Positions 16,845 to 64,000 of a DNA stretch of 64,000 nucleotides are shown piece by piece (positions within the stretch are counted from its first letter, which is position 1; each line of letters begins with the position of its first letter). The notes below the pieces were generated by a model. That model ran no database searches. It was not told where the DNA came from and was given only the letters and a program-made list of their open reading frames with translations. Source of the DNA: Pseudovirgaria hyperparasitica (Eukaryota; Ascomycota; Dothideomycetes; Acrospermales; Acrospermaceae); NCBI RefSeq assembly GCF_010093815.1, contig NW_022985551.1, forward strand, positions 1,933,087 through 1,997,086, given 5' to 3'. The position numbers were made by a program, and so were the translations under genes.

Positions 16845-16995
16845 TACATACACACGCATACACGCATACACACATACACACACGCGTACACGCGTACACG
16901 CATACACGCATACACGCATACACGCATACACACATACACACACGCATACACACATACACACGCGTACACACGCATACACACACAGACACACATAC
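16845..16995. repeat. Compound CA-rich tract
   Basis: Interspersed ACACGCATAC, ACACATAC and ACACGCGTAC units over about 150 bp, alternating purine-pyrimidine almost throughout; a candidate Z-DNA-forming stretch. Confidence 0.9.
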
Positions 16996-17022
16996 AATTG
17001 GATTTGAACCATGACTTTGTTA

Positions 17023-44154: not shown

Positions 44155-45847
44155 ATGTCGAACTCACATCGAAACTCCTACGATGGACCATCGCAAGCGG
44201 CGGCGGATCCCAACCCTCCCACCTACGCCGCCTTCGCGCCTTCGTCTGGTCCACAGAGTAGCACTGTGTCGCAACAACGTTCGACCATACTAGTACACCA
44301 AAAGAGCCCTCTTCTGGTCGCAACTCCACCACAAGTCACACGAGTACTCGCATTCTCGCATCCGTTCATCTTGACATTGAGCAAGATCGTAGGGCTGATA
44401 ACATGGACAACAGGAGATCCCTGGGAAAGTTTTCTTATGGTAGCCGGCTTCTGGCTACTGACAATATATGGAGATTTGGTTGTAAGATGGGCCGGGCCAC
44501 TCGTGGTGGTCGTAGGGATCATAATCGGAATGTATTCAAGAAGATATTCTCCTCTGTCATCCACAGGCTGGACCGGCGAGAAACAGAAAGGGCACAGAAG
44601 AGGCGATCCCGAGACCACCAACACGAGGCACCATAAGAGCCTAGAAGAGATCGTAAATACCGTCAAACTGTTCACTTCAAGGTGTAACATACTACTGGAC
44701 CCTTTTCTACGATTTACAGACTTCCTATCCACGCAAAGAACAGCAACATCAGCAACCACTAGGCCCGCCCTGACAACAATGTTTATTCGCATATTGCTCA
44801 TCACTCCTGTCTGGATTCTCATGACGTTGCCGCCATTGTATTTGATAACAACGAAAAGAGTAATTCTAAGCGTTGGGACTGTGATTCTGAGTTGGCACTC
44901 AAGGCCTGCAAGAGTATCTCGGCTTGTCTTATGGCGGTCAAAAACAGTTCGAAAGGTATGTGCGACGGTGACGGGCTTGAATTTCGAAAGTCTGGAAAAC
45001 CAAAACGGCAAGAACAAAACGGATAGACCACCCCCACTCCCACCACGGACCAGGAGTGCAAACGCAATCGCGGCATCTCTCGCTGCGAAGAGAAGGTCTG
45101 ATTCCCCAGGTATCCGCTTCACATTCTCCATATTCGAGAACCAGAGAAGATGGCTTGGTATTGGCTGGACTGCATCGATGCTAGCTTATGAGCGGGCTGC
45201 GTGGACTGATGAGACTCTATTTCCAGCACCGTCGAAAGATGCTTTCGATCTACCGGAGGTTGAAGGAGGACATGCAAAATGGAGATGGGTTGATGGCAGT
45301 ATATGGAGAGTCGATGGTGCTGAATATAGTGAATCCGATCCTTCCGGGAGTCAATCCGTTAATGGGTGGCTTTTTTACGATAACAAGGTGAGATATCAAT
45401 ACTGGCTATTGTCCCTGGCCCTAACATCCATAATAGTGGCGAGATGGTCGAAGAGGGTTAGATGGCTGGGGCCGTTATACTCGGCGCCGAAAGTGGTATA
45501 GAGACGCCGAGCTTGTTGAGATCTCCCCTTCGATGGACGTCACGCCTTCACCAACGCCTCGACTGAGCTCGTCGCCAAAAGCTGGCTCAGTCGTCGGGTC
45601 AGAGTCTGAAGCAACATTGTTGGATGACACAGCCAATGAGAGCGACGCTAACAGTCAAGGCACAAGGCGCCGACGTTGGTTCAGAAGAAGCAGCAACTCT
45701 GGGAGCATGAAGAGTGGTGACACAGAAGGAAGTGCGGCGAGCTCTCGTAGGAGTGACGATGATAATGACCTCCACACGCCTGTGCGGCATCAGCAGCGCC
45801 AAGATGAATGGAATTTTGGAGATGAGGCCCGCATGCAGCTAGGATAG
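44155..45847 (+). CDS. Dysferlin-domain peroxin (Pex28-32/Pex24 group)
   Basis: Integral membrane protein of peroxisomes or peroxisome-ER contact sites that controls peroxisome size and number in fungi. Exons 44155-45387 and 45437-45847 (49-nt intron, GTGAGA/TAG) give 547 residues. The cytosolic N-tail is followed by hydrophobic segments (PFILTLSKIVGLITW, SFLMVAGFWLLTIYGDLVV, AGPLVVVVGIIIGMY, then FIRILLITPVWILMTLPPLY and TTKRVILSVGTVILSW). A bipartite dysferlin domain comes next: FTFSIFENQRRWLGIGWT and ERAAWTDE, then KWRWVDGSIWRVD. After the intron it continues with GWLFYDNKWRDGRRGLDGWG and YTRRRKWYRDAELVE. The tail is Ser-rich and probably phosphorylated. Which of Pex28-Pex32 it corresponds to is not decided. 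Confidence 0.87.
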
Positions 45848-48800
45848 AAACATGACATTAGCGCGGAGTTACAGGAGCACATCGCGATACCATTAGGATG
45901 TTGACACGCGGTCCCAATCTGATAATGGTGGCTCGAGGCTTGGTCACATTTGATCAAGATTGGTGTGTGCCATGTCTCATGCGTGAGTACAATGTTGACC
46001 TGCCAACATCACGTAATCATAGATTTAAGCATGTATGTACCATGTTGTCCACCACCTGCCAACACACCTCATTTCTACTCCCACTTCCATCTCCCTTGCT
46101 TGAATATTGACAGTCCTGATACTGCATCTATCACGCTCTCTACGCCGGTTGGTGGTGTTGGTCTCGCATGGCACGTACTCTTGGTCCATTGTACCAATCG
46201 CAAACCTAAGTGGATCCGCAACGGAACTCAAATACTGTCGCAGATGCATTCATGCGTTCGCAAACATATGACAGATGGCTTTCAGAACTGTCTAACGAAT
46301 GGATGCAAGTCAGATCCGCAATTTGCCTGCCAATCCACGATCTCGGTCACCTACCGCGACGACGTTGTCGTGGTTTCACCCACTGAAACGTAGCGAGCAC
46401 GCCATCGACGGCAGATTCGAACGACCGCAGACGTCCTCCTACAAGTAGTTCCTTTGCCTCGGGGTCTATGGCCGCATGATTTCACCACGAAATCGCCATA
46501 TGGTTCTTTAGTCTTAACAGGATCTATGGGCCAGCCGATTATTCTTCTACTTGCTGGAAGACGTCAAATGCAAGACCAAACCAGAGCATCTCGTCTCGCG
46601 TACCTCGATCGCGCAGAACGGCACGTCTCTCGGCGACCTTCCCAGACAGTCTTATCTTGGTCTCGATTAAACGGATCACGCGTTGGTACGACCTTCACCC
46701 TGGCTAGTGAGCTCTAGTAGACGACTTGCGGCCGACTTCCCTACTTTGAGCGAGCAGGGTTGTGGTTCAGCATGCCTATCTCTGGGATCGCGGATGAAGA
46801 AGCTTTGCTTGTTGACTTCAGCTTCATCGTTGGGCCAGTATTACCCCAAAGCGCACTCTGGTGTATAGCCACTCCTCTGTCGCCGTATATTTCTTTCCTC
46901 TACATGTTCGAGCTGTCGGAAATGCGAGCACTTGCCCATGGTCCTGTGCAGAACTTGCACCCGTAGTCATTGGCGAGCGGACCAACAAGTATTATGTGAA
47001 GCATTTGTACCGGCTACGGCTGCCTTCTGAGTAACCGAGTATCCTAACTTCACAAGCTCAGCTCTGTTATATTTCGAGGATATCAATTGTTCAAGGATCT
47101 ACCATTCATAGCACTCTAGGATTCGCAGTAGGACAATTCAACCGCCTCTTGCATACTCAGCCTACGAACACCTCCGGACCCAGGTCCCAAGTCTTGCTGT
47201 TAGGGCGGCGCCGGATGATTCAAGCAAATTGCTCCGTTCCTGGTCCCGAAGCCAATGAAGACAATGACCAATTCGCCTGAATGTCTAGAGTCTTGTGCTT
47301 GCAGTCTCGTGACGATATGCCTGTGTGTCGGGTCAAAGACTGAGCTATCGCTCTGTGGAAAGAGGACGCAACACGAAGTCCGACTATCTGCGAACTATCA
47401 GTAACGTCTTGATTCTATCTCCTTCGATTCACGAGTGGAGCTAAAAGCGGTCTCCTGGGCTTCGTTGAAAGAGTCGACCAAGGTGAAGATGGGACGGCAG
47501 ACAGGCCTGGATGATCGAGACGTGCAAATACACACCCGAAAATCATCAAGCCAAGGCCGAGCATGCCAGTTGTAAGTCTCGTAATTACGGACACATGCGA
47601 TTTAACAATTGCTCAGAAGTGGCAGCACATGTCAACTGTAGCATGTCTTAGGTATCGACTTCGACTTCATCGTACGACTAAGCACAACCTCCATCAGACG
47701 CAACACGAAGCCTGTAACGGTTCTGTAATTCTCGCTATTTTCACAATAGGGACGCAGTCCGACAATCCCACGTCCCCACTACAGCTCTACCGACACACTT
47801 TCAATTACGTTACTTTAGAGGATTCGATTTACGATATCGGACTTCGCCAATAATTGACATTCAAATCACGAAGCCCTCTCGACACAGCACTAATGGAAAC
47901 ATGGCGAACTTATCAGGCCAATCAACAGCCATGTTGTGACGAATAGGAAGTCAACTGCAACAATCGGCCCTTCCAACGTCAGCTGCTATACCAATGTCGC
48001 TCATACAAAATGAGTACTCGAACGCAAGTCTCGATGCTATCTAGCCGTGTGCAATCACTTCCGCTACCATTCATGCACAGTTCCATGAAAGAGGCAGTGA
48101 TGGACTCTAGACGAAGCACGTAGTAGCTGTGCGTATGAGATATCTCCTTCGAGCAAAGACGCCGCGCAAATAGCGCATCGAGCATCCCACGTCCCAGGAT
48201 AATGGTGTATGCATATAATTCTTGCATACAATCGAAATCCTGAAAGGCTGCAGGCGAGGATCTCCAACGACACGGACATTCCCAATCGATCTTCAGTCGC
48301 GTTAGCCGCTTGGATTGGTATCCACTTCGACTGACCTCTATGTACGCAAAGGAAAAGGCTCTAAGAGTGGCATCGAAAGGGACGGTCCCACTTAATTTTC
48401 CACTTTGCATGATACACAAAGAGGTCACTTGAAGTAAAGAGCAAAGGGAATCATCAAGAAACCTGGAGCCCCCACACCTGTCACGCATTGCCAAGCTGAT
48501 TTCACCCTATCATTCGCAAGCACTAGCGTCGTCGGCGCAAGGCCAGATCGTAAAGCCGAGACACTTTCCGCTGACCAACGCCGCATCCATCAGCTTCACG
48601 GCCACCGTTGCCCGACGGCTATAACCACATCGGCCCATCTAGTGATCGTGGAATATACACAGCGACTTATATCAAGGAATTCTGTCAGCTCCATCCGGAG
48701 CGCCAGGACGATGAAATGACCTTGTAAAATATACTACTTTACGGAGCTTCGATGCGCCTCGGAGCTGTACCAACGGTCCGGGCTTCTGGACCTCCCTTAC

Positions 48801-50255
48801 GGACCGTCGGCGGGACGTACACGCTGTGGTTGCACGCATCTCATCACGGGCCATGATGAACTCCTGATTGGGCTACTGGCCAAGCCGGAGCATCCTTGAG
48901 CTGGCTCACATTGGACGCCGCAAAATACGCGAGTCATCAGTCCCACGATGCAGGATGACCAGAAGTTGGAGCTCAGAGACCGCTAGCGCTTGATGGAGTA
49001 TGCCAACAACATATCTGATAGTCGTCAGGCTTCACACATTCGACCGCACATCACTACCACAATCGGCCTGGGTCGTAGCATCAAACCCTGTTCTGTCGTG
49101 GAGTCCTGCATAGGTCTGGGCACACGCCGGGCGAGCCACCAAACATCGCAGTGTACGGGTCGCTCTGTCTATACGATATCATTCATGGCAGGTCGATACA
49201 TATCATGCTCGTTTTCCGATGACCCGGCGTCCGGGTACCTCCGATACGGTAGGCTGTGATTACCAGTATAGCGCGTCAAATAGGGCACGCAACGCCGGGT
49301 GGGTCACACGGCTTGGAGAAGAGTGAGTAGGCCATCCATTGCCATCTCAGGTGATTTAACATGTAGCCGGAATAAGCGACACGAAGGCCAGGTAGAAATG
49401 CCAAAGCCGAAGGGTTCCAAAGCCGTCCCTGCACAGATGCAACTTAGCGCAGTATTAAGATGCGCTAAGCAGCCTTGATTTACCCACGTCACATCGTACA
49501 GGTCAAGTTTGAGGTAAGGTCAGAGATGCGTTTGCAGCTGCATCCGCATGTATTCGTGTAGTGGTTGGGTAAATGGACCCCACGCCATGTCTCTGATTCC
49601 GACGGGTGTTGATCTTACCCGATGGCAGTTGTCGTCAATGTCATCCACGTGCATGCTCTGCTGCTGGCTGGTCGACGAGCCCCCGGCTCGTTCCCATCCT
49701 TGCTAGGCCACTCCATCCCCACGCCACATACATGCTGCAGTAGATGTACTCTTGGCATTCAGTACTCTGGCAGACATATTGTGTATAGTACCGGTAAGTT
49801 TATGGTCCATGTTTGATGTCTAGATACACTGCTGTGATCATGCCTGGCCTGGCGAGAGGTAGAGGACAGCAAAGATATGCAGTATGTTGACATGCCGCGA
49901 CGACCGAGAGCAGCGCCGAGACGCAGACGTGTCGATGAGATGGATGGGTACAGGAACGGGTGGGTGGCATGGCGCTACGCCGGCCAGACGAGTCTGACCC
50001 TGTCCGGGAGGTGTAGGTATGTCTGATGGTTGGAGGGAGCAGTGTGGGATGGTTGTATTGGACCAAACACACGTATCCTGCATATCTCGCGACGGGGGTG
50101 AGCAACCCTTGGGAAAGTGTATATAAGGAGTGCTGGCTCGCGGTCTGTGAAGGTCGATTCTTCATCCGCGATCGATATCTTTGCAATACTACAAGCTTTT
50201 ACTACTACTACAACCAAATTCTTTCGATTTTTAAATCAACCAACTCTGTCAACAT
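45848..50255. other. Gene-poor 4.4-kb region
   Basis: No frame exceeds about 170 codons, and none of the frames (for example 47979-48494 minus, 46454-46717 plus, 48990-49259 plus) shows a known motif, codon pattern or linked splice sites. Base composition is mixed rather than AT-rich, and no terminal repeats or duplicated blocks were noticed. It ends in the promoter of the first metallothionein gene. It may hold a decayed gene or non-coding transcripts, but I see nothing I can name. Confidence 0.5.
50120..50127 (+). promoter_or_regulatory. TATA box of metallothionein gene 1
   Basis: TATATAAG lies 129 bp before the metallothionein ATG, consistent with a strongly inducible gene with a leader of about 90-100 nt. 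Confidence 0.55.
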
Positions 50256-50591
50256 GTCTCCCTGGTGAGTCCTCTCTCCCTTCTCGTGACGGGCTGGTCG
50301 AGCTGGTAACGTCTTGTGCATTACCACTTGACATCATCAGCTCGGCTTCGACAGTATATGTATACCCTTGACAAGGATAACGCTGACCTCAATGCCTATT
50401 CACAGTAGCTGCTCCTCTTGCTCTTGCTCCGGCAACTGCAACTCGTGCGGCTGTGGTGCCTGCAGCGTACGTTCCTCTCTCCCATCACTCATCTCTTTCA
50501 CCCACTTCACTTCCCTACCCTTCCCTTCCTCCCACTCCTTCCCAAGAGCCAGCAAAACACCACTACCGTACTGACAACCACCAAGCACTAA
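50256..50591 (+). CDS. Metallothionein 1 (25 residues, 8 Cys)
   Basis: Small metal-chelating protein. Exon 1 (50256-50266) ends inside a Cys codon. A 139-nt intron (GTGAGT/CAG) leads to exon 2 (50406-50466), which carries nearly the whole protein. A 119-nt intron (GTACGT, branch CTGAC, AAG acceptor) leads to the last exon (50586-50591, His-stop). The product begins MSPC and contains the metal-binding series CSCSSCSCSGNC then NSCGCGAC. Cysteines sit at 4, 6, 9, 11, 15, 18, 20 and 23, with no aromatic residue. The CxC/CxxC spacing is that of fungal copper metallothioneins. The last splice is the least certain; reading through the GTACGT would give a much longer, unrelated tail. It faces a second metallothionein gene 770 bp downstream. 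Confidence 0.82.
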
Positions 50592-51360
50592 GCTTTCCCA
50601 ACAACCGTCTCCCTACTCCCTTTCCATCGACAACAATAACAACGCATCTCTGAGCACGTTTTGAGCCGCAGCACAATACACATACAAACAACCTCTTTTC
50701 TTCTCTACTTGCTTGCTAGCTGGGAAGGAAGAGCCGGACATGAGCGGGTTCTAAACCACTGTAAGGGTACGACATGATGGGATCGTGAGCGTTGGAGCTT
50801 TTGGGTTGTGTTATGTAGGATGGTGTATATCTGAATATATAACTTGGAGAGAAAATTCTCGAGACTTTGTGTATGTGATGTGAATGTGATGTGATGTTAT
50901 GAGTGACTGGGCTTTGAAGTCTTAGGTACGTGGCGGTGGTGGTTTGTACTGGTGGTCAGATCGATAGGGCTGATGTGCCTTATCTGCGTAAGTATGAAAC
51001 AATGTTCAGGGATTGTGCCTGATGCTCGAAGTAAGGGGAGTGAGTCTGTGCAGAGGGAGAGGATGGACCACAGTGGAGGAGGATATAGTGAAGCATGTAT
51101 GGTATGGAACAAAAATGTCGTATTCAATGGTGTATGTGTCAATTTGGTATCTCAAAGCTCGATTTGTTTGCGAAGAGAGAGGATGATAGCGTTTGCCTTG
51201 TACATCATCCCATTAATCCGTCGGCCTGGAAAGTAACAACCACGAATCCTGATCAACCAAGCAAGCAATAGCAAATTTGAAGGAGTGACATCCTAGCAAA
51301 AACTCCGAATCATGCAATCTGTGTATCCGAAGGGGGGTTGTTGGTGTGTTGTGGATTGGG
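50592..51360. other. Spacer between the two convergent metallothionein genes
   Basis: 769 bp, containing the 3' ends of both genes. GTGATGT-type short repeats occur near 50870-50900. No further gene seen. Confidence 0.5.
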
Positions 51361-51485
51361 TTATTTCTGTGTGACTATGTTAGCATTCACTTGGGTCGTG
51401 AATTGGGTTGAAAGGAGGGGGTACGTACGCCGCAAGTGCAGTTGGCACCGCAGGCGCAGGAGTCTCCGCAAGAGCAGCCGTGCAT
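51361..51485 (-). CDS. Metallothionein 2 (20 residues, 6 Cys)
   Basis: Two exons, 51485-51429 and 51366-51361, are split by a 62-nt intron (GTACGT donor, TGCTAAC branch, CACAG acceptor); the second exon is just Lys-stop. The product starts MHGCSC and continues GDSCAC, GANCTC, GK. The cysteines at 4, 6, 10, 12, 16 and 18 therefore form three evenly spaced CxC pairs with no aromatic residue, a compact copper-metallothionein design. Spacing and sequence differ from metallothionein 1, so the two are probably distinct types rather than a recent tandem duplicate. On its promoter side, a GATAAG occurs at about 51654 and TATATGATAAGG near 51625 (plus-strand coordinates). Confidence 0.82.
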
Positions 51486-52829
51486 GTTGGATGGTATGTT
51501 TGTTGTTGAAGGGTTGTGGATTGAAAGTGTAGCTGGGTCTGAGACGAGGATGCTTTGAGAGGAAGTGTGTAACTGGTGTTGCTGGAGGTAAGTCGAGGGG
51601 TATCAGACGAGCGGGGTCTTCTTATATGATAAGGCGCGATTATTGCGATAAGAAACACGTGCCGCGCCCCCCAACCGACTAACCGACCAACGCGACCGAG
51701 CGAGCCCTTCGAGGCAAGGAGCGGCCCGTCAAGGACTTCCAGGCGTCGCCGATCGACGACCTGCCAGCCAATCAGCCGTGTTGCGCGCATTGTGCGGTCG
51801 GATCTGCGCGTCTTGTGCGTCGCAAATTTCTCCACTCGTGGGGTTTGGACGTGTTTGCGTGCCTTGAAGAGGGTGTTTGAGTCAGTTGTGCGGTGCTGCG
51901 CGACTTGTGCGGACAAGCCACTACGACTTATGACGGGGGGGGCGAGCGACTTGTGCGGACGCTGACTTGGTCAGGATGGCTGGCGAGACTCCTCCGTCGC
52001 TCGGTGATGCCGTTTATTGGAAGCATTGCAACGTGGCTTGGCTCTGCTACGACGATTGAGGCTACATCGTCTATAGTCGGTGTGCAGAGTCGTATTGAGA
52101 AGGATGAGAGGAATGAGGGCTTTGCCACACGATATTAGCAATGAAGTTATGGATCGGCCGTGATCAAAGGACATTAGATATCCTGCTTTGGCCGACAACT
52201 TTACGTGTCCTTGATCAGCAGAGTTCTCCATCTGGATTTCCAATACAACAGAAGCGAGACTCCGCTTAGTCTACACTGCTATGCCTTCGAGGGTTAAAGG
52301 AGGTGATAACTCATGGTTCTCCTACTGAGCCGCAGACAGTACATCATACGTAGAATCCCCCCGACTGTCACAGTAGAACACCGAAAGAGAGATATACATC
52401 TGCTAAAGAGGTAATAGCCAGTATTAAGTCTTACAAGAGTAGTTTCTTCTATGTTTACTCTCCTTACTATCTATACTTTGATATCTCCTACTATTCATTT
52501 AGTTCTTGAGTACCCTTTATATATCTCGACTGAGAGAATGGTAGATAAATATATTATATACTACGATTAAGACCAGTATCACATTTAGCTTAACAGTGGT
52601 ATGCTTTCACCAAACTCTGTAACAGTCAAAAGCTCATCAGTCGAGGTCAGCCCTACATACAACGCCAAGGTATGACGACGTTCTTACGCTAGTCCAGTTC
52701 AGGCTAGAGGACTTCGAGATTTCAGTCCCGTCGCGCGCGCGCGTTTCAATCCACACACAAACTTCTTTCCTCCACCTTCACTCGCACCCCAATAAACCTA
52801 CAAGTGTTGGTCCATTGAACTTCTTTACA
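51486..52829. other. Intergenic region with AT-rich island
   Basis: The left part (51486-52140) is the promoter side of metallothionein 2. The part from about 52340 to 52620 is clearly AT-rich and TA-dinucleotide-rich compared with its surroundings. The right end has a GCGCGCGCGCG run (52733-52743) and the leader of the next gene. No gene seen. Confidence 0.55.
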
Positions 52830-58668: not shown

Positions 58669-61600
58669 CTAGTACCGGCGTGTTCGTGGAGGTGACTGGC
58701 TTGGGGGAGCACGAGCTTGATATTGAGAAATCTCGCGAAGTCCATGACCCTCGCTAGATGTCTTCCGGAGCTTCTGTCGCTGCCTGCGAAGTTTCTCGGC
58801 ATCGTCACCAGAATAGGTTCGCGCCTGAAGAAAAGGGCCGTCAATCTCCGCAGTGGGGCTGCTCGAAGTGGGTGTCTGGGCAGGGCTGTTTGGGCTGGAT
58901 CGACCAAAGCCGAATCGTCTGCGTGGATTCATTGGTGGCAAAGGCGGTACAAAGTCCTGGCCGTTCTTGAGAGAGGCGCCGGGTGGAAGAGCGACGGTCT
59001 CTTGCACAGACGTAGAGGACAGTAGGGTAGGCTCGGAAATGTCCTGCTTGTTGACAGTACGTCGACGGGGCTGCTGGCGGTTAGGGCCAAAAGCTGTGCC
59101 TGTGGGTGTGTTGACCGCCGACAGTGGAGGCGTAGCACTGACAGCATAGCCTGTTTGGATAGGGCGTTGGAGAGACATTGGGCCATTTGTCGGGCCTGGA
59201 GATGGACGAGGTGAGGGTGGAAAGGCTCCGGAAAGACCAATCGCTGGGCTAGGCATAGATGGCACTTGGTGCGAGGTATTGAGATGAGATGGATGCAGCG
59301 AGTGCTCGGAATATTGACTTGTCGCCGTTGACTTGCTGTTGCTGCGGCTTCGATTCGATGACGGGACTGCAAAGGTGGCGTCAGGCGTTGTGCTCGTCGA
59401 CCCAGTCTCCTCTGCCATTGACCTGTCCAGCTCGTCGTGATAGGCACGGCTGCGGGATCGCCCAGACGAGATATCAGAGCTGGATCGATTGCGAACTGAG
59501 CTGGCCTGGGAAGCGGGAGATCGGCCAACGGGTGGTCTGCTATGCTCACGACTACTTTCGCGCCCAGCATCAAAATGATACTGGTTGTCATACGTGTTTC
59601 CTCCATATCTGGGCCTGGAATGGGAGGAGCCTCGAGACCTCAGCGAGGCGTGCCGCTCATCCTCGGATCGCCATTGGTCTCGACCGATCTTGTTCACACT
59701 TGTGGAAGAGCCACTGTATCCAGGCATCTTCATCCTGCTGGGCTCATGGCGGAGGCTTGAGGCCATTGAGTCCTTGCTCGACTTTGACCTGAGCATGCCA
59801 AACGCCTTCCGTGCATTGGAGACTGAGTGACTGTCCTCTTCCACTTGGCGCATCCTTTCCGCAATGGCCTTCTGGCGTTGGGCGAGCTCTTGCTGGAATG
59901 CATCGCGCTCCTCAACACTAGGTTGTCGTTTGTGTTTAGTCATCATCTCAAGCTCCCAGGCTGCTCTTCTGGCCTCGGCCTCCTGTTGGATCTCAAACGC
60001 GCGAGCTTCCATCTCGTCGAGCGTGAGTTTACGACCGGTAGTAGTAGTAGAAGTCGACTGTGGTGCCTGCTGGTCGACAGGGCTGACAGAACTCATGCTG
60101 TCATTCTCCATGTAATCGCTCCGGTCAAAGTCTTCGAGGTCCCAGGGGTTAGAGTGGCTGTGAGCCGAATGGGCAGCCGTGTCAGAGACGGAAGGCGCCA
60201 GATTCTGACTCGAGTAGCTCTGCTGGTAGAAGTTGTCTTGCGGGCCGGTTGTGTCTGAATTGTGGTCCGAGTAATTGGATGAGACGTTGCTGACGTTGCG
60301 CAGGTGCTGACGAACAAGACCACTCAAGCATCCACCGTTTGGGCCGAGTGTGGGCGAGTCGAGATCGATGCCTTTGGCGCCATCTAGGTCGAGAGCAGGA
60401 GCTGCAGACTGTGGGATTGGGCGTGTATCCTCGATTCGTTTCCGTGCCGGGACATGGTCAGACTGCTGCTGCTGAGACCGCAAAGCAGGATGCTCATGGA
60501 TAGGAGGGGCGACTAATTTGGGCGCGAGCGGGCTTCTCGAGGCATCAGAGTCGACATCTGCTCCATCTGCAGAGGCAGAGAACGATCGTTGTTGACCAGA
60601 AGCCAAGGTCTGAGGCTGCGAACTTTGAGCGCCATTCACCCGCATCTGGTTGGCGGCATTTTGGAAGACACTGAAGGCGGTAGGGGCGGCGGCGGCCTTG
60701 GGGGCAGTCTGGGCTTGATCACTCTCTCTTCGTGACGAATCACCCTCACCGTCATCACCATCGTCACCTCGTCGGGGTGGAGGGGTGTCTCGGCCGCCTT
60801 GGTGAAGGTGCATTTGGCGTTGCAGATATTGTTCCTCACTAAAAGCTTTCGGCTTGTTGAACGCTCCGAGAGCCGTGGCCTTTCCTCGGTCATTGGGATT
60901 GAGCGCACTCGTCAGTTCATCTTGGTCAGCTTGAACGGGACTGATTGGTGGTGTGCTTGAGTGGCCCAAGACAGGACTGGAGGCATTCGAAAAGTTATCT
61001 CTCGGTGCAATGGCGTGGTTGTTATACGTCACCGGAGGTGGGCTGACCGTTCTCGAGGCAGGGTTGGAGCGCTGATATCGGTCGCTCAAGTTGCTAGCGC
61101 TCCGAGCCTGCGACAGGGCAGTTGGAGAGGATTTCCCGCTTGCGGTACCGCCGTGTTGTTGTCTCTGAACTGTGTTGAGTCTGTTGAGCTGGGAGGTCTG
61201 CTGTTCGTGCATGTGCTGATCCAAGCCCTGTTCGTAGAGTCTTCTGGTCTTGGTGACTGAACGCTCGAGCGGCGCTTGTGACTGACTGGTGGGTGAGACT
61301 GCAGTTGCACCCTGTGATGCGATTGAGGTTGCTGCTGTTGAGGATCGGGAGTTTGATGGTCCTGAATTCGTAGATGAGGATGTTTCACGCCGCTTGTCGT
61401 AGCCGGACAAGGCTGCCAGAGTGTCGTCCCTGAGAGAGGCAGTATTGACCTGATCGCGTAGCTCTTGCTCCCGCCTCTCCTTTTCTTCTTTCCGCAGCCT
61501 CTGAAAGGACGACATGCTGACATCATCTTCATACAAAGCTCTTCCTCGGTTATTGCCGGTGCCAGAAATCTTGTACACTTTTTGACGACCACCAAACAGG

Positions 61601-62070
61601 ATATTGCCTTCGCCCGGGCGTGCTCGACTCATGACACTGCCACCATCCATATCATCAGAGGTAGTGCGAAGAGTCTCCATTGAGGTCTGTCTCTCCATCA
61701 AGAATGGAGGTTTGATAGAGCCATTGATGGACATCTCATCAATGTCGGCGAGGGTTGATGATTTGAAGCCAAAGTCGTAAAGGCGTGACTGTCTGTTGGA
61801 GGATAGAACACTGTCGTCGCTAGCCTTGCCCAGCTTCGACTTTGGATCGTCTTGCTCTCTTAGCATGCTGAAGCGCGCCGACAGGTTTGGCATGATCAAG
61901 CTGGTACGAAAGTCATCGGAGCTCGGTAGGGCAGCAGCCAGATCAAGCTCTGGTTTTTGCTCGACCTGACCTTTCTTACCCTTTTTTGGTTTCTTCGTTC
62001 CAAACGAGGCGGAAGAGTTGCCCAGGTCTTCTGTGGCGTCCTTTCTGGACTTTGTGAAGAATCTGTTCAT
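58669..62070 (-). CDS. Large disordered protein with central coiled coil, function unknown
   Basis: An uninterrupted frame encodes 1133 residues from the ATG at 62070; an in-frame ATG at 62175 would add 35. I favour 62070 because MNRFFTKSRK opens an ordered-looking block (PELDLAAALPSSDDFRTSLI, then MPNLSARFSMLREQDDPKSK) that resembles conserved fungal proteins. Other ordered islands are LYDFGFKSSTLADIDEMS, EGNILFGGRQKVYKI, TLGPNGGCLSGLVRQHLRNV, and a coiled coil near 730-810 (LTLDEMEARAFEIQQEAEAR, AFQQELAQRQKAIAERMRQV). Everything else is Ser/Pro/Gln-rich. The C-terminal KLRRQRQKLRKTSSEGHGLR is basic. No catalytic motif, membrane span or signal peptide. A scaffold or cortical adaptor is a guess only. 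Confidence 0.78.
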   Translation of the reverse strand: MNRFFTKSRKDATEDLGNSSASFGTKKPKKGKKGQVEQKPELDLAAALPSSDDFRTSLIMPNLSARFSMLREQDDPKSKLGKASDDSVLSSNRQSRLYDFGFKSSTLADIDEMSINGSIKPPFLMERQTSMETLRTTSDDMDGGSVMSRARPGEGNILFGGRQKVYKISGTGNNRGRALYEDDVSMSSFQRLRKEEKERREQELRDQVNTASLRDDTLAALSGYDKRRETSSSTNSGPSNSRSSTAATSIASQGATAVSPTSQSQAPLERSVTKTRRLYEQGLDQHMHEQQTSQLNRLNTVQRQQHGGTASGKSSPTALSQARSASNLSDRYQRSNPASRTVSPPPVTYNNHAIAPRDNFSNASSPVLGHSSTPPISPVQADQDELTSALNPNDRGKATALGAFNKPKAFSEEQYLQRQMHLHQGGRDTPPPRRGDDGDDGEGDSSRRESDQAQTAPKAAAAPTAFSVFQNAANQMRVNGAQSSQPQTLASGQQRSFSASADGADVDSDASRSPLAPKLVAPPIHEHPALRSQQQQSDHVPARKRIEDTRPIPQSAAPALDLDGAKGIDLDSPTLGPNGGCLSGLVRQHLRNVSNVSSNYSDHNSDTTGPQDNFYQQSYSSQNLAPSVSDTAAHSAHSHSNPWDLEDFDRSDYMENDSMSSVSPVDQQAPQSTSTTTTGRKLTLDEMEARAFEIQQEAEARRAAWELEMMTKHKRQPSVEERDAFQQELAQRQKAIAERMRQVEEDSHSVSNARKAFGMLRSKSSKDSMASSLRHEPSRMKMPGYSGSSTSVNKIGRDQWRSEDERHASLRSRGSSHSRPRYGGNTYDNQYHFDAGRESSREHSRPPVGRSPASQASSVRNRSSSDISSGRSRSRAYHDELDRSMAEETGSTSTTPDATFAVPSSNRSRSNSKSTATSQYSEHSLHPSHLNTSHQVPSMPSPAIGLSGAFPPSPRPSPGPTNGPMSLQRPIQTGYAVSATPPLSAVNTPTGTAFGPNRQQPRRRTVNKQDISEPTLLSSTSVQETVALPPGASLKNGQDFVPPLPPMNPRRRFGFGRSSPNSPAQTPTSSSPTAEIDGPFLQARTYSGDDAEKLRRQRQKLRKTSSEGHGLREISQYQARAPPSQSPPRTRRY

Positions 62071-62197
62071 TGTGGCTTTGCAAAGGTTAGCTATGATGGA
62101 ACGTTTGCGGACAAGACACTTGGGGTGGTTGGAGAGAGAGATGGGCGAATCGCCAGTAGTAGTATGCTGGACCATTGAAGGGAAGCTGTCTTACAAG

Positions 62198-62200
<3 letters not shown>

Positions 62201-62241
<41 letters not shown>
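62201..62241. repeat. (GT)20 microsatellite
   Basis: About 20 perfect TG dinucleotides just upstream of the large disordered-protein gene, within its likely 5' region. Confidence 0.95.
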
Positions 62242-62244
<3 letters not shown>

Positions 62245-64000
62245 AGGTGTTGCAATGCGTGCAATTACGACACTAACGTTTGTCCGGGAAGGTCTACTTC
62301 TGTGGATAAGTCTGTTGCACGCGCAGCTTGAGATAACCGGCGGCAACGACTTTCACGGTTTGATCCGAGTATATTCGACGTGCTTACAGTGAGGATTCAA
62401 TTGTCTTCGCTTTCGAGCGTGTCCACGCGGGTGAGCAGTCGTGGCTGAGCAGCTAGGCGACTGGCGTGGATGATACGCGATCGTGATGGTGTATCTTTTA
62501 GGTCTAGGCCCAGCACAACTGTCTCCATACACACCAAGCTGCTGTGAATTGGTTTGAGAGGATGGTATCAAAGTAGCAGGATCGGCTGAATGAATGCGGA
62601 CGGCGGGAGTAATGCTATATCGAGCAGAGAATGGTACGGTTGAGGGTAATGTTCCGAGGCGGAGGAATTGATAGGTTTCGGAGGTCAAGGCGGTGCGAGC
62701 AAGGAGCGTCAGTTGAATCGAGATGGAGTATGGAGCAGGGGTGTGGTAAAAGAGTGTTTCTAGAGAGTGGACAGATACAGAAGCGAAGGACGACGGTAAA
62801 GAGTAGTGAGCGAGGAAGGAGCAAAGAAGACGTTGCCAGCGTCTTGAGCAAAAAGGACTGTGAGGATGGTTAGAAAAAGCTGTCAGAGGGGGAAACAGGA
62901 CGAGAGCGCACGAGGAAAAGAAAGGTGTGTGAGAGAGAAGCCGCCGGGCAGTCTCCCGCTCTGGTTCCTGAGTCTGAAGGGGGACAAGGCTAGTTTTGGG
63001 GGGGGGAGGACCATGTACGTACCTTGCAGCGTAAGGGGGGCAAGATGGAAAAAAGACGAGAGCACAAAGCTCGACTGTGACTGGACCAGCACGCCCGTTT
63101 TCTCCACGCTGAGGAGAGATGACAAGGGGGGAGGGGAGGGGGAAGGGGTTTGCAGAAAAGCAGCACAGCAGAAAAGTAGGCTCTTAGCGTCGACGATCCC
63201 GGCCAATTGACAAAGGTCCGCTGGTCGATGGTTCGACGAGCTGATGGTGTAGACGGCCCGGCGACGGCAGCAATCGTGGCGCGCTCAGTTCCGGACTTGG
63301 GGGAGACTTGGGTGTGTGGGCCTGGCTGCTGGCAAGGTTGTGTGAAGAAAGTGGGCAGAGGAGGCGAAGGGATTGGAGCAAGTGGTGGTGGTGGTCAAGG
63401 CAGGATTAACGTTTGTGTCGGTGTTGAGGAAGCGAGGTATGGGGGGAGTCAAGGAGGGTGGTGGTAGTAGGCAGGGCAGCAGCCCAACGAAAGACGTGGA
63501 AGAAACGGAATTGTTTCAGTGGAGATGGGCGAGAAGCGGAGGCTCGAAATGAGAAGTGTGATGATGAAGAGGATGGATGGATGGATGGATGGATGGCGAA
63601 ACGTAGTGTATGGATGGACGGATGGTGATAGGTGAGTGGTGGTGGTGGTGGTGGTGGTATGGTAGTAGGTTGGTCAGCGGGAATGGAGGCCTGCCCGTGA
63701 AGCCTCGTACTCGCACATTCGCACACTCGCACACTCGCACAAACACCACCACACTGTCCACACACATTGTCAGTATGCACCTTTGCAGTCCTAGTGGCTG
63801 CACAACACAACACGCTCTGGTGGTGAGTTGGTGGCAGCTGTACGGCATCAATGGTTGGGCTGACTGTTGATATGTCTGTCTCTTGTGGCAAGGTAGATAA
63901 TTGGTGTAGCTAATGAACGAGGATATCAATTTAGTAGACTCGTGGCTGGACACGGATACGGGATGAAGAAGGGCATGCTCTCTCTCATGCACAGCACAGC
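62242..64000. other. Right-edge region, no gene recognised
   Basis: Probable promoter and leader of the disordered-protein gene. A minus-strand donor-like AAGGTACGTAC near 63013-63023 hints at a 5'-UTR intron. Simple repeats: GGAT at 63574-63595, GGT near 63637-63660 and a CACTCGCA run near 63715-63740. Open frames here are low-complexity. Confidence 0.45.

What the first reader, a model, noticed from the sequence alone, without database searches (positions are those of the whole stretch)
50256..51485. Two tiny, intron-split, convergent metallothionein genes
Seen: two frames encode 25- and 20-residue cysteine-rich peptides (8 and 6 Cys, all in CxC/CxxC spacing, no aromatics), each ending in an exon of only one residue plus stop. 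Known: such spacing is typical of fungal copper metallothioneins. Inference: a metal-tolerance pair of two different metallothionein designs facing each other 770 bp apart, isolated in an otherwise gene-poor stretch, with a TATA box on one promoter and GATA-type sites on the other. ORF callers and most gene predictors would miss both.
Basis: partly seen in the sequence, partly recalled or inferred. Interest (0 to 1): 0.78.

Follow-up and report, generated by a model that had tools for sequence, protein, structure and literature searches.

The report
Two tiny convergent fungal metallothionein genes
Two very small, intron-split genes that face each other in a mould's genome very probably make two different cysteine-rich peptides that bind and store metals, one of them resembling a known cadmium-binding peptide; they look like new members of an old family rather than something new in kind.

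Summary
The window lies in the genome of Pseudovirgaria hyperparasitica (Dothideomycetes, Acrospermales). Spliced as proposed, the plus strand gives a 25-residue peptide with 8 Cys (MT-A) and the minus strand a 20-residue peptide with 6 Cys (MT-B), stops about 770 bp apart. All three introns are GT..AG with a CTRAC branch site. Filtered metallothionein-like stretches: 2 in the window (these two), 0 in 200 kb sampled from the same genome, 1 in 82 Mb simulated. Chance is unlikely. No transcript and no fungal relative could be tested.

Metallothioneins: very probably. Copper for both: not supported. MT-A has the make-up reported for the Cd-specific, 8-Cys, His-containing metallothionein of Heliscus lugdunensis. 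MT-B is a short CXC-only peptide, nearer in style to Neurospora copper metallothionein, but it fails that family's 7-Cys pattern. The promoter contrast is wrong: both genes have a TATAAG element, and GATA sites are at chance level. Best reading: two real metallothionein genes of different design, perhaps divided between divalent metals and copper. Moderate interest.

The parts
50120..50126 (+). TATA-type element TATATAA, 134 bp upstream of the MT-A start codon
   Evidence: 1 match in 800 bp upstream, 0.21 expected; function not tested
50254..50264 (+). MT-A exon 1 (ATG TCT CCC TG)
   Evidence: unspliced the frame stops after 4 residues
50265..50405 (+). MT-A intron 1, 141 bp, GTGAGT..CAG, branch site CTGAC at 50383-50387
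   Evidence: splice consensus only
50406..50466 (+). MT-A exon 2, holds 8 Cys codons including the one split by intron 1
   Evidence: only match of the peptide in the own genome
50467..50585 (+). MT-A intron 2, 119 bp, GTACGT..AAG, branch site CTGAC at 50571-50575
   Evidence: splice consensus only
50586..50591 (+). MT-A exon 3, CAC TAA (His, stop)
   Evidence: inferred. A single His is also reported for the 8-Cys Heliscus MT (title seen)
51361..51366 (-). MT-B exon 2, AAA TAA (Lys, stop)
   Evidence: inferred. C-terminal Lys also in N. crassa MT (Table 1 of PMC4755600)
51367..51428 (-). MT-B intron, 62 bp, GTACGT..CAG, branch site CTAAC at 51379-51383
   Evidence: splice consensus only
51429..51485 (-). 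MT-B exon 1, 19 codons with all 6 Cys (every Cys codon TGC)
   Evidence: only match of the peptide in the own genome
51621..51627 (-). TATA-type element ATATAAG, 142 bp upstream of the MT-B start codon
   Evidence: 1 match in 800 bp upstream, 0.06 expected; function not tested
51627..51651 (+). two HGATAR sites (TGATAA 51627-51632, CGATAA 51646-51651)
   Evidence: 2 found, 1.53 expected in 800 bp, so no more than chance

Best explanation
Two real protein-coding genes for two different small metallothioneins. Each peptide is made in the cytosol and folds around metal ions through its Cys thiolates. MT-A (8 Cys plus a C-terminal His) most likely binds divalent metals (Cd, Zn) in the manner of the Heliscus lugdunensis peptide; MT-B (6 Cys, three CXC units) most likely forms a small Cu(I)-thiolate cluster. 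Together they would buffer or detoxify metals. Shown: frames, splice signals, Cys patterns, excess over chance. Inferred: splicing, expression, metal binding and the split of metals between the two.
For: Spliced frames with good donors, CTRAC branch sites and acceptors for all three introns. Two filtered Cys-rich stretches within 1.1 kb against 0 in 200 kb of the same genome and 1 in 82 Mb simulated. Codon third bases as in well-expressed genes of filamentous fungi (recalled): pyrimidine in 23 of 24 and 17 of 19 codons. Both start codons sit in CAACATG and both have a TATA-type element at -134/-142. MT-A make-up equals that reported for the Heliscus MT: eight Cys (PMC13107397, passage) and one His, Cd-specific (title of Perinelli et al. 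2020 in the reference list of PMC8003315). With the Heliscus letters as I recall them, 16 of 24 residues match without a gap, all 8 Cys in register, and 8 of 16 non-Cys positions match, reached by 116 of 20000 shuffles. Copper-fist regulator domain found at two places in the genome.
Against: No transcript, no relative: the protein search refuses queries under 40 aa, the 71- and 80-aa open frames around the exons found nothing. No Pfam family above cut-off (MT-A none, MT-B Metallothio_2 at E 0.58, 11.6 bits against 23) and no metallothionein among PDB matches. No Ace1/Cuf1-type HTHNNGCTGD site upstream of either gene (0 found, 0.7 and 0.6 expected). The Heliscus letters are recalled, not seen in a call. 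Metal preference cannot be read from such short sequences with confidence.
Confidence: 0.8

Rival explanations
1. Both are copper metallothioneins (Cu-thioneins) of the filamentous-fungus kind; no division of labour.
For: Most characterised fungal MTs are Cu-thioneins, and the N. crassa and A. bisporus 7-Cys MTs bind about six Cu (PMC13107397, passages). CXC-rich patterns in both. Copper-fist domains in the genome.
Against: MT-A shares 8 Cys plus His with a peptide described as cadmium-specific; neither has the family-8 Cys pattern; no copper-fist consensus site upstream (an uninformative absence).
Confidence: 0.3
2. The peptides serve something other than metal tolerance, such as antioxidant or cell-wall roles during growth on the host fungus, as proposed for Magnaporthe Mmt1.
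For: Mmt1 is reported to be needed for appressorium function and to act as an antioxidant in infection structures (PMC9036806, passage; PMC12089313, passage). The species name points to hyperparasitism.
Against: Nothing in the locus speaks for it; no secretion signal is possible in peptides this short.
Confidence: 0.1
3. One or both exons belong to a longer protein, and the one-residue last exons are wrong.
For: Other acceptors give longer C-termini for MT-B (one search lists them), and the last exons rest on splice consensus only.
Against: The chosen acceptors are the ones next to a CTRAC branch site; the C-termini CSH and GK fit known or recalled MTs; a Podospora PaMT1 primer printed in PMC2654708 reads, reversed, as a short last stretch ending in Lys and stop.
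Confidence: 0.1
4. Chance Cys-rich frames in non-coding DNA.
For: Unfiltered, Cys-rich frames are common in this genome because of GT-rich repeats.
Against: The filtered pattern occurs twice within 1.1 kb and 0 times in 200 kb and once in 82 Mb simulated; splice signals and leaders fit both frames.
Confidence: 0.05

Closest known systems
Metallothionein of Heliscus (Neonectria) lugdunensis, Cd-specific
   Same: Eight Cys (PMC13107397) and a His (title), as in MT-A; by recalled letters the same length, Cys spacing and CSH end, 16 of 24 residues identical
   Different: 8 of 24 residues differ by recalled letters; metal preference of MT-A untested; gene structure of the Heliscus gene not seen
Neurospora crassa copper metallothionein (Binz-Kagi family 8, fungi-I; UniProt P02807)
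   Same: Very short, CXC units, no large hydrophobic residues, C-terminal Lys as in MT-B (sequence in Table 1 of PMC4755600)
   Different: 7 Cys with gaps 1,5,1,3,1,2 against 1,3,1,3,1 in MT-B (lacks the last Cys) and 1,2,1,3,2,1,2 in MT-A
Podospora anserina PaMT1
   Same: Copper-induced ascomycete MT whose 3' primer (PMC2654708, passage) reads as an intron-end-like CTATAG followed by a short stretch ending in Lys and stop, so a late intron is likely there too (my reading of the primer)
   Different: Full sequence not seen in any call; ends in Cys-Lys
Magnaporthe Mmt1
   Same: Very short ascomycete MT (recalled: 22 aa, 6 Cys), nearest in size to MT-B
   Different: Sequence not compared here (Tucker et al. 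2004 is not held); role in infection structures reported

Membership tests
Metallothionein superfamily (general) | Low-mass, Cys-rich peptide with CXC/CXXC motifs and few or no aromatic residues | tested here: met
   8 of 25 and 6 of 20 residues are Cys, no F, W or Y
Metallothionein superfamily (general) | Binds metals through thiolates | not testable with these tools
   Needs purified peptide
Metallothionein superfamily (general) | Matches a curated metallothionein model | tested here: not met
   Pfam: MT-A none, MT-B PF01439 at 11.6 bits against cut-off 23; models for such short fungal MTs may not exist
Binz-Kagi family 8 (fungi-I, Neurospora/Agaricus type) | Cys pattern X2-[CXC]-X5-[CXC]-X3-[CXC]-X2-C-X3, 7 Cys | tested here: not met
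   Pattern from PMC4755600; gaps of MT-A and MT-B differ
Heliscus-type 8-Cys Cd metallothionein | Eight Cys plus a single His | tested here: met
   MT-A has 8 Cys and one His; Heliscus make-up from PMC13107397 and a title; that the His is single is recalled
Heliscus-type 8-Cys Cd metallothionein | Same Cys spacing | tested here: inconclusive
   Identical spacing with the letters as recalled; no call printed the Heliscus sequence
Heliscus-type 8-Cys Cd metallothionein | Cd-induced, Cd-specific | not testable with these tools
   Needs expression and metal-binding data

The most novel reading that the evidence does not exclude
A two-metal locus: a divalent-metal (Cd/Zn) metallothionein and an independent copper metallothionein, of different ancestry, kept as a convergent pair sharing one 770-bp 3' region, so that one locus covers both classes of metal and read-through or antisense transcription from either gene could dampen the other. 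MT-B, at 20 residues, would be among the smallest genetically encoded eukaryotic metallothioneins.
Probability: 0.2. Interest if true: 0.5.

Novelty: new member of a known kind. Interest (0 to 1): 0.35.

Why it matters
Metallothioneins of filamentous fungi are few, very short and often misannotated (PMC4755600). A pair of unlike designs side by side in a dothideomycete gives a clean test of whether Cys spacing alone decides between copper and divalent metals, and shows that genes of 20-25 codons with one-residue last exons can be found from sequence alone.

Tried and rejected
The protein search refuses under 40 aa, related-loci runs the peptides too short, and the natural stop-to-stop frames that hold the exons gave nothing (no candidate; one candidate, none at E <= 10). 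That is no evidence of absence.

More MT genes in this genome: each peptide finds only itself (one candidate scored each). The recalled Heliscus and the N. crassa MT found nothing, but the tool says an empty answer shows nothing, and it also failed to find MT-A with the Heliscus letters, so it is too insensitive to count copies. The sample scan of 200 kb found none.

PDB: no metallothionein among matches (0; 4 weak, best a carbonic anhydrase at E 0.15; 0). As a control the N. crassa letters find 1t2y, so short MTs can be found when nearly identical.

Phytochelatin synthase: no match, but no control rang either, so nothing follows. Regulatory sites: Ace1/Cuf1-type, Zap1-type, STRE, MRE and others scanned; nothing convincing. 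The bacterial promoter/terminator scan is not meaningful here. Structure prediction was not tried: the peptides are below the 30-aa minimum and fold only with metal.

Considered and dropped: that the two genes are recent duplicates. Their Cys gaps and residues differ.

Full report
Where the window comes from. A peroxin ORF at 44155-45501 is 100% identical over 92% of its length to a protein named Pex24p-domain-containing protein of Pseudovirgaria hyperparasitica, whose contig length of 2,322,540 equals that of contig C3 in which the window lies. Mapped back, that protein covers 44155-45393 (99.8%) and 45437-45844 (100%). The genome held is 35.03 Mb in 59 contigs. NCBI taxonomy places the species in Dothideomycetes, Acrospermales.

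The genes. MT-A on the plus strand has exons 50254-50264, 50406-50466 and 50586-50591 and gives MSPCSCSSCSCSGNCNSCGCGACSH. MT-B on the minus strand has exons 51485-51429 and 51366-51361 and gives MHGCSCGDSCACGANCTCGK. The finding's coordinates for the MT-A start and first donor are 2 bases off; the rest is exact. Unspliced, MT-A would stop after four codons. Introns are 141, 119 and 62 bp, each GT..AG, with CTGAC, CTGAC and CTAAC at 23, 15 and 17 bases before the intron end. Both start codons follow CAAC. Codons end in a pyrimidine in 23 of 24 (MT-A) and 17 of 19 (MT-B) cases.

Is it chance? Counting any 15-residue stretch with six or more Cys is a poor test: 8 in the window, of which 6 are valine-cysteine runs at about 16.9-17.0 and 62.2 kb, 18 in 200 kb of the same genome, and 217 in 36 Mb simulated. 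Adding what marks metallothioneins, no adjacent Cys and only small or polar residues between (a set I chose after seeing the peptides), leaves 2 in the window, exactly these genes, 0 in the 200 kb sample, 1 in 41 Mb of order-2 and 0 in 41 Mb of order-5 simulated sequence. Two such frames 1.1 kb apart, each with fitting splice signals, are not chance.

Surroundings. The PEX24 gene ends at 45844 and a poly(A)-polymerase-like ORF begins at 52815. Of 78 stop-to-stop frames of 55 aa or more listed around the stretch I scanned 10 against Pfam: one is the second PEX24 exon, 9 others had nothing above the curated cut-off. Gene-poor is fair, not proven. Upstream, TATATAA lies at -134 of MT-A and ATATAAG at -142 of MT-B; two HGATAR sites upstream of MT-B compare with 1.5 expected; no HTHNNGCTGD copper-fist site lies within 800 bp of either gene, with 0.7 and 0.6 expected. 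The genome has two copper-fist domain matches above cut-off, so a copper-sensing regulator family exists, though nothing links it to these genes.

What kind of metallothionein. The Neurospora copper metallothionein is MGDCGCSGASSCNCGSGCSCSNCGSK, and its family-8 pattern is X2-[CXC]-X5-[CXC]-X3-[CXC]-X2-C-X3 (PMC4755600, introduction read). Neither peptide fits it. MT-A has 8 Cys and a C-terminal His. [quoted passage not shown] That paper is not held. With the Heliscus letters as I recall them the match is 16 of 24 without gaps, all 8 Cys in register, and 8 of 16 non-Cys positions, reached by 116 of 20000 shuffles of the non-Cys residues. This would also vouch for the one-residue last exon (His, stop), which was inferred before the comparison. 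I mark the letters as recalled; a search of the paper library for pieces of them found no paper. MT-B has three CXC units and ends in Gly-Lys; a terminal Lys is shared with Neurospora MT and, by my reading of a primer, Podospora PaMT1 (PMC2654708, passage).

How it most likely works. Shown: frames, splice signals, Cys patterns. Inferred: expression; metal binding by thiolates; Cd/Zn for MT-A by likeness to Heliscus; Cu(I) for MT-B by its CXC-only make-up and likeness to Neurospora, whose 7 Cys hold six Cu (PMC13107397, passage). Confidence that both are genuine metallothionein genes is about 0.8; for the split of metals about 0.4.

What speaks against. No Pfam model above cut-off, no PDB metallothionein match, no homologue from the open frames, no transcript data. 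The tools cannot search such short queries well: the Neurospora and recalled Heliscus peptides did not find even these loci in the own genome, and the answers say that this shows nothing.

Verdict. A correct and careful observation of two very small genes. They are new members of a known kind. The most interesting untested reading is a single locus with one divalent-metal and one copper metallothionein.

Noticed in passing
window 51337-51358 and 51502-51523: A 22-nt CA-rich stretch (86% identical) occurs both just upstream of the MT-B start codon and just downstream of its stop; possibly only similar low-complexity leader sequence.
   Followed up: no
window about 16880-17000 and 62178-62250: GT-rich repeat-like runs whose frames read as valine-cysteine repeats; they mimic Cys-rich peptides and must be filtered out in such searches.
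   Followed up: partly
window 58669-62175 (-): An open frame of 1168 aa without any Pfam family at E 0.001.
   Followed up: no
window 47979-48506 (-): A 175-aa open frame in the gene-poor stretch with no Pfam family; gene or chance not settled.
   Followed up: no
G000 C9:1274258-1274338 and C4:693509-693583: Two copper-fist DNA-binding domains above the Pfam cut-off: candidate copper regulators in this genome.
   Followed up: no
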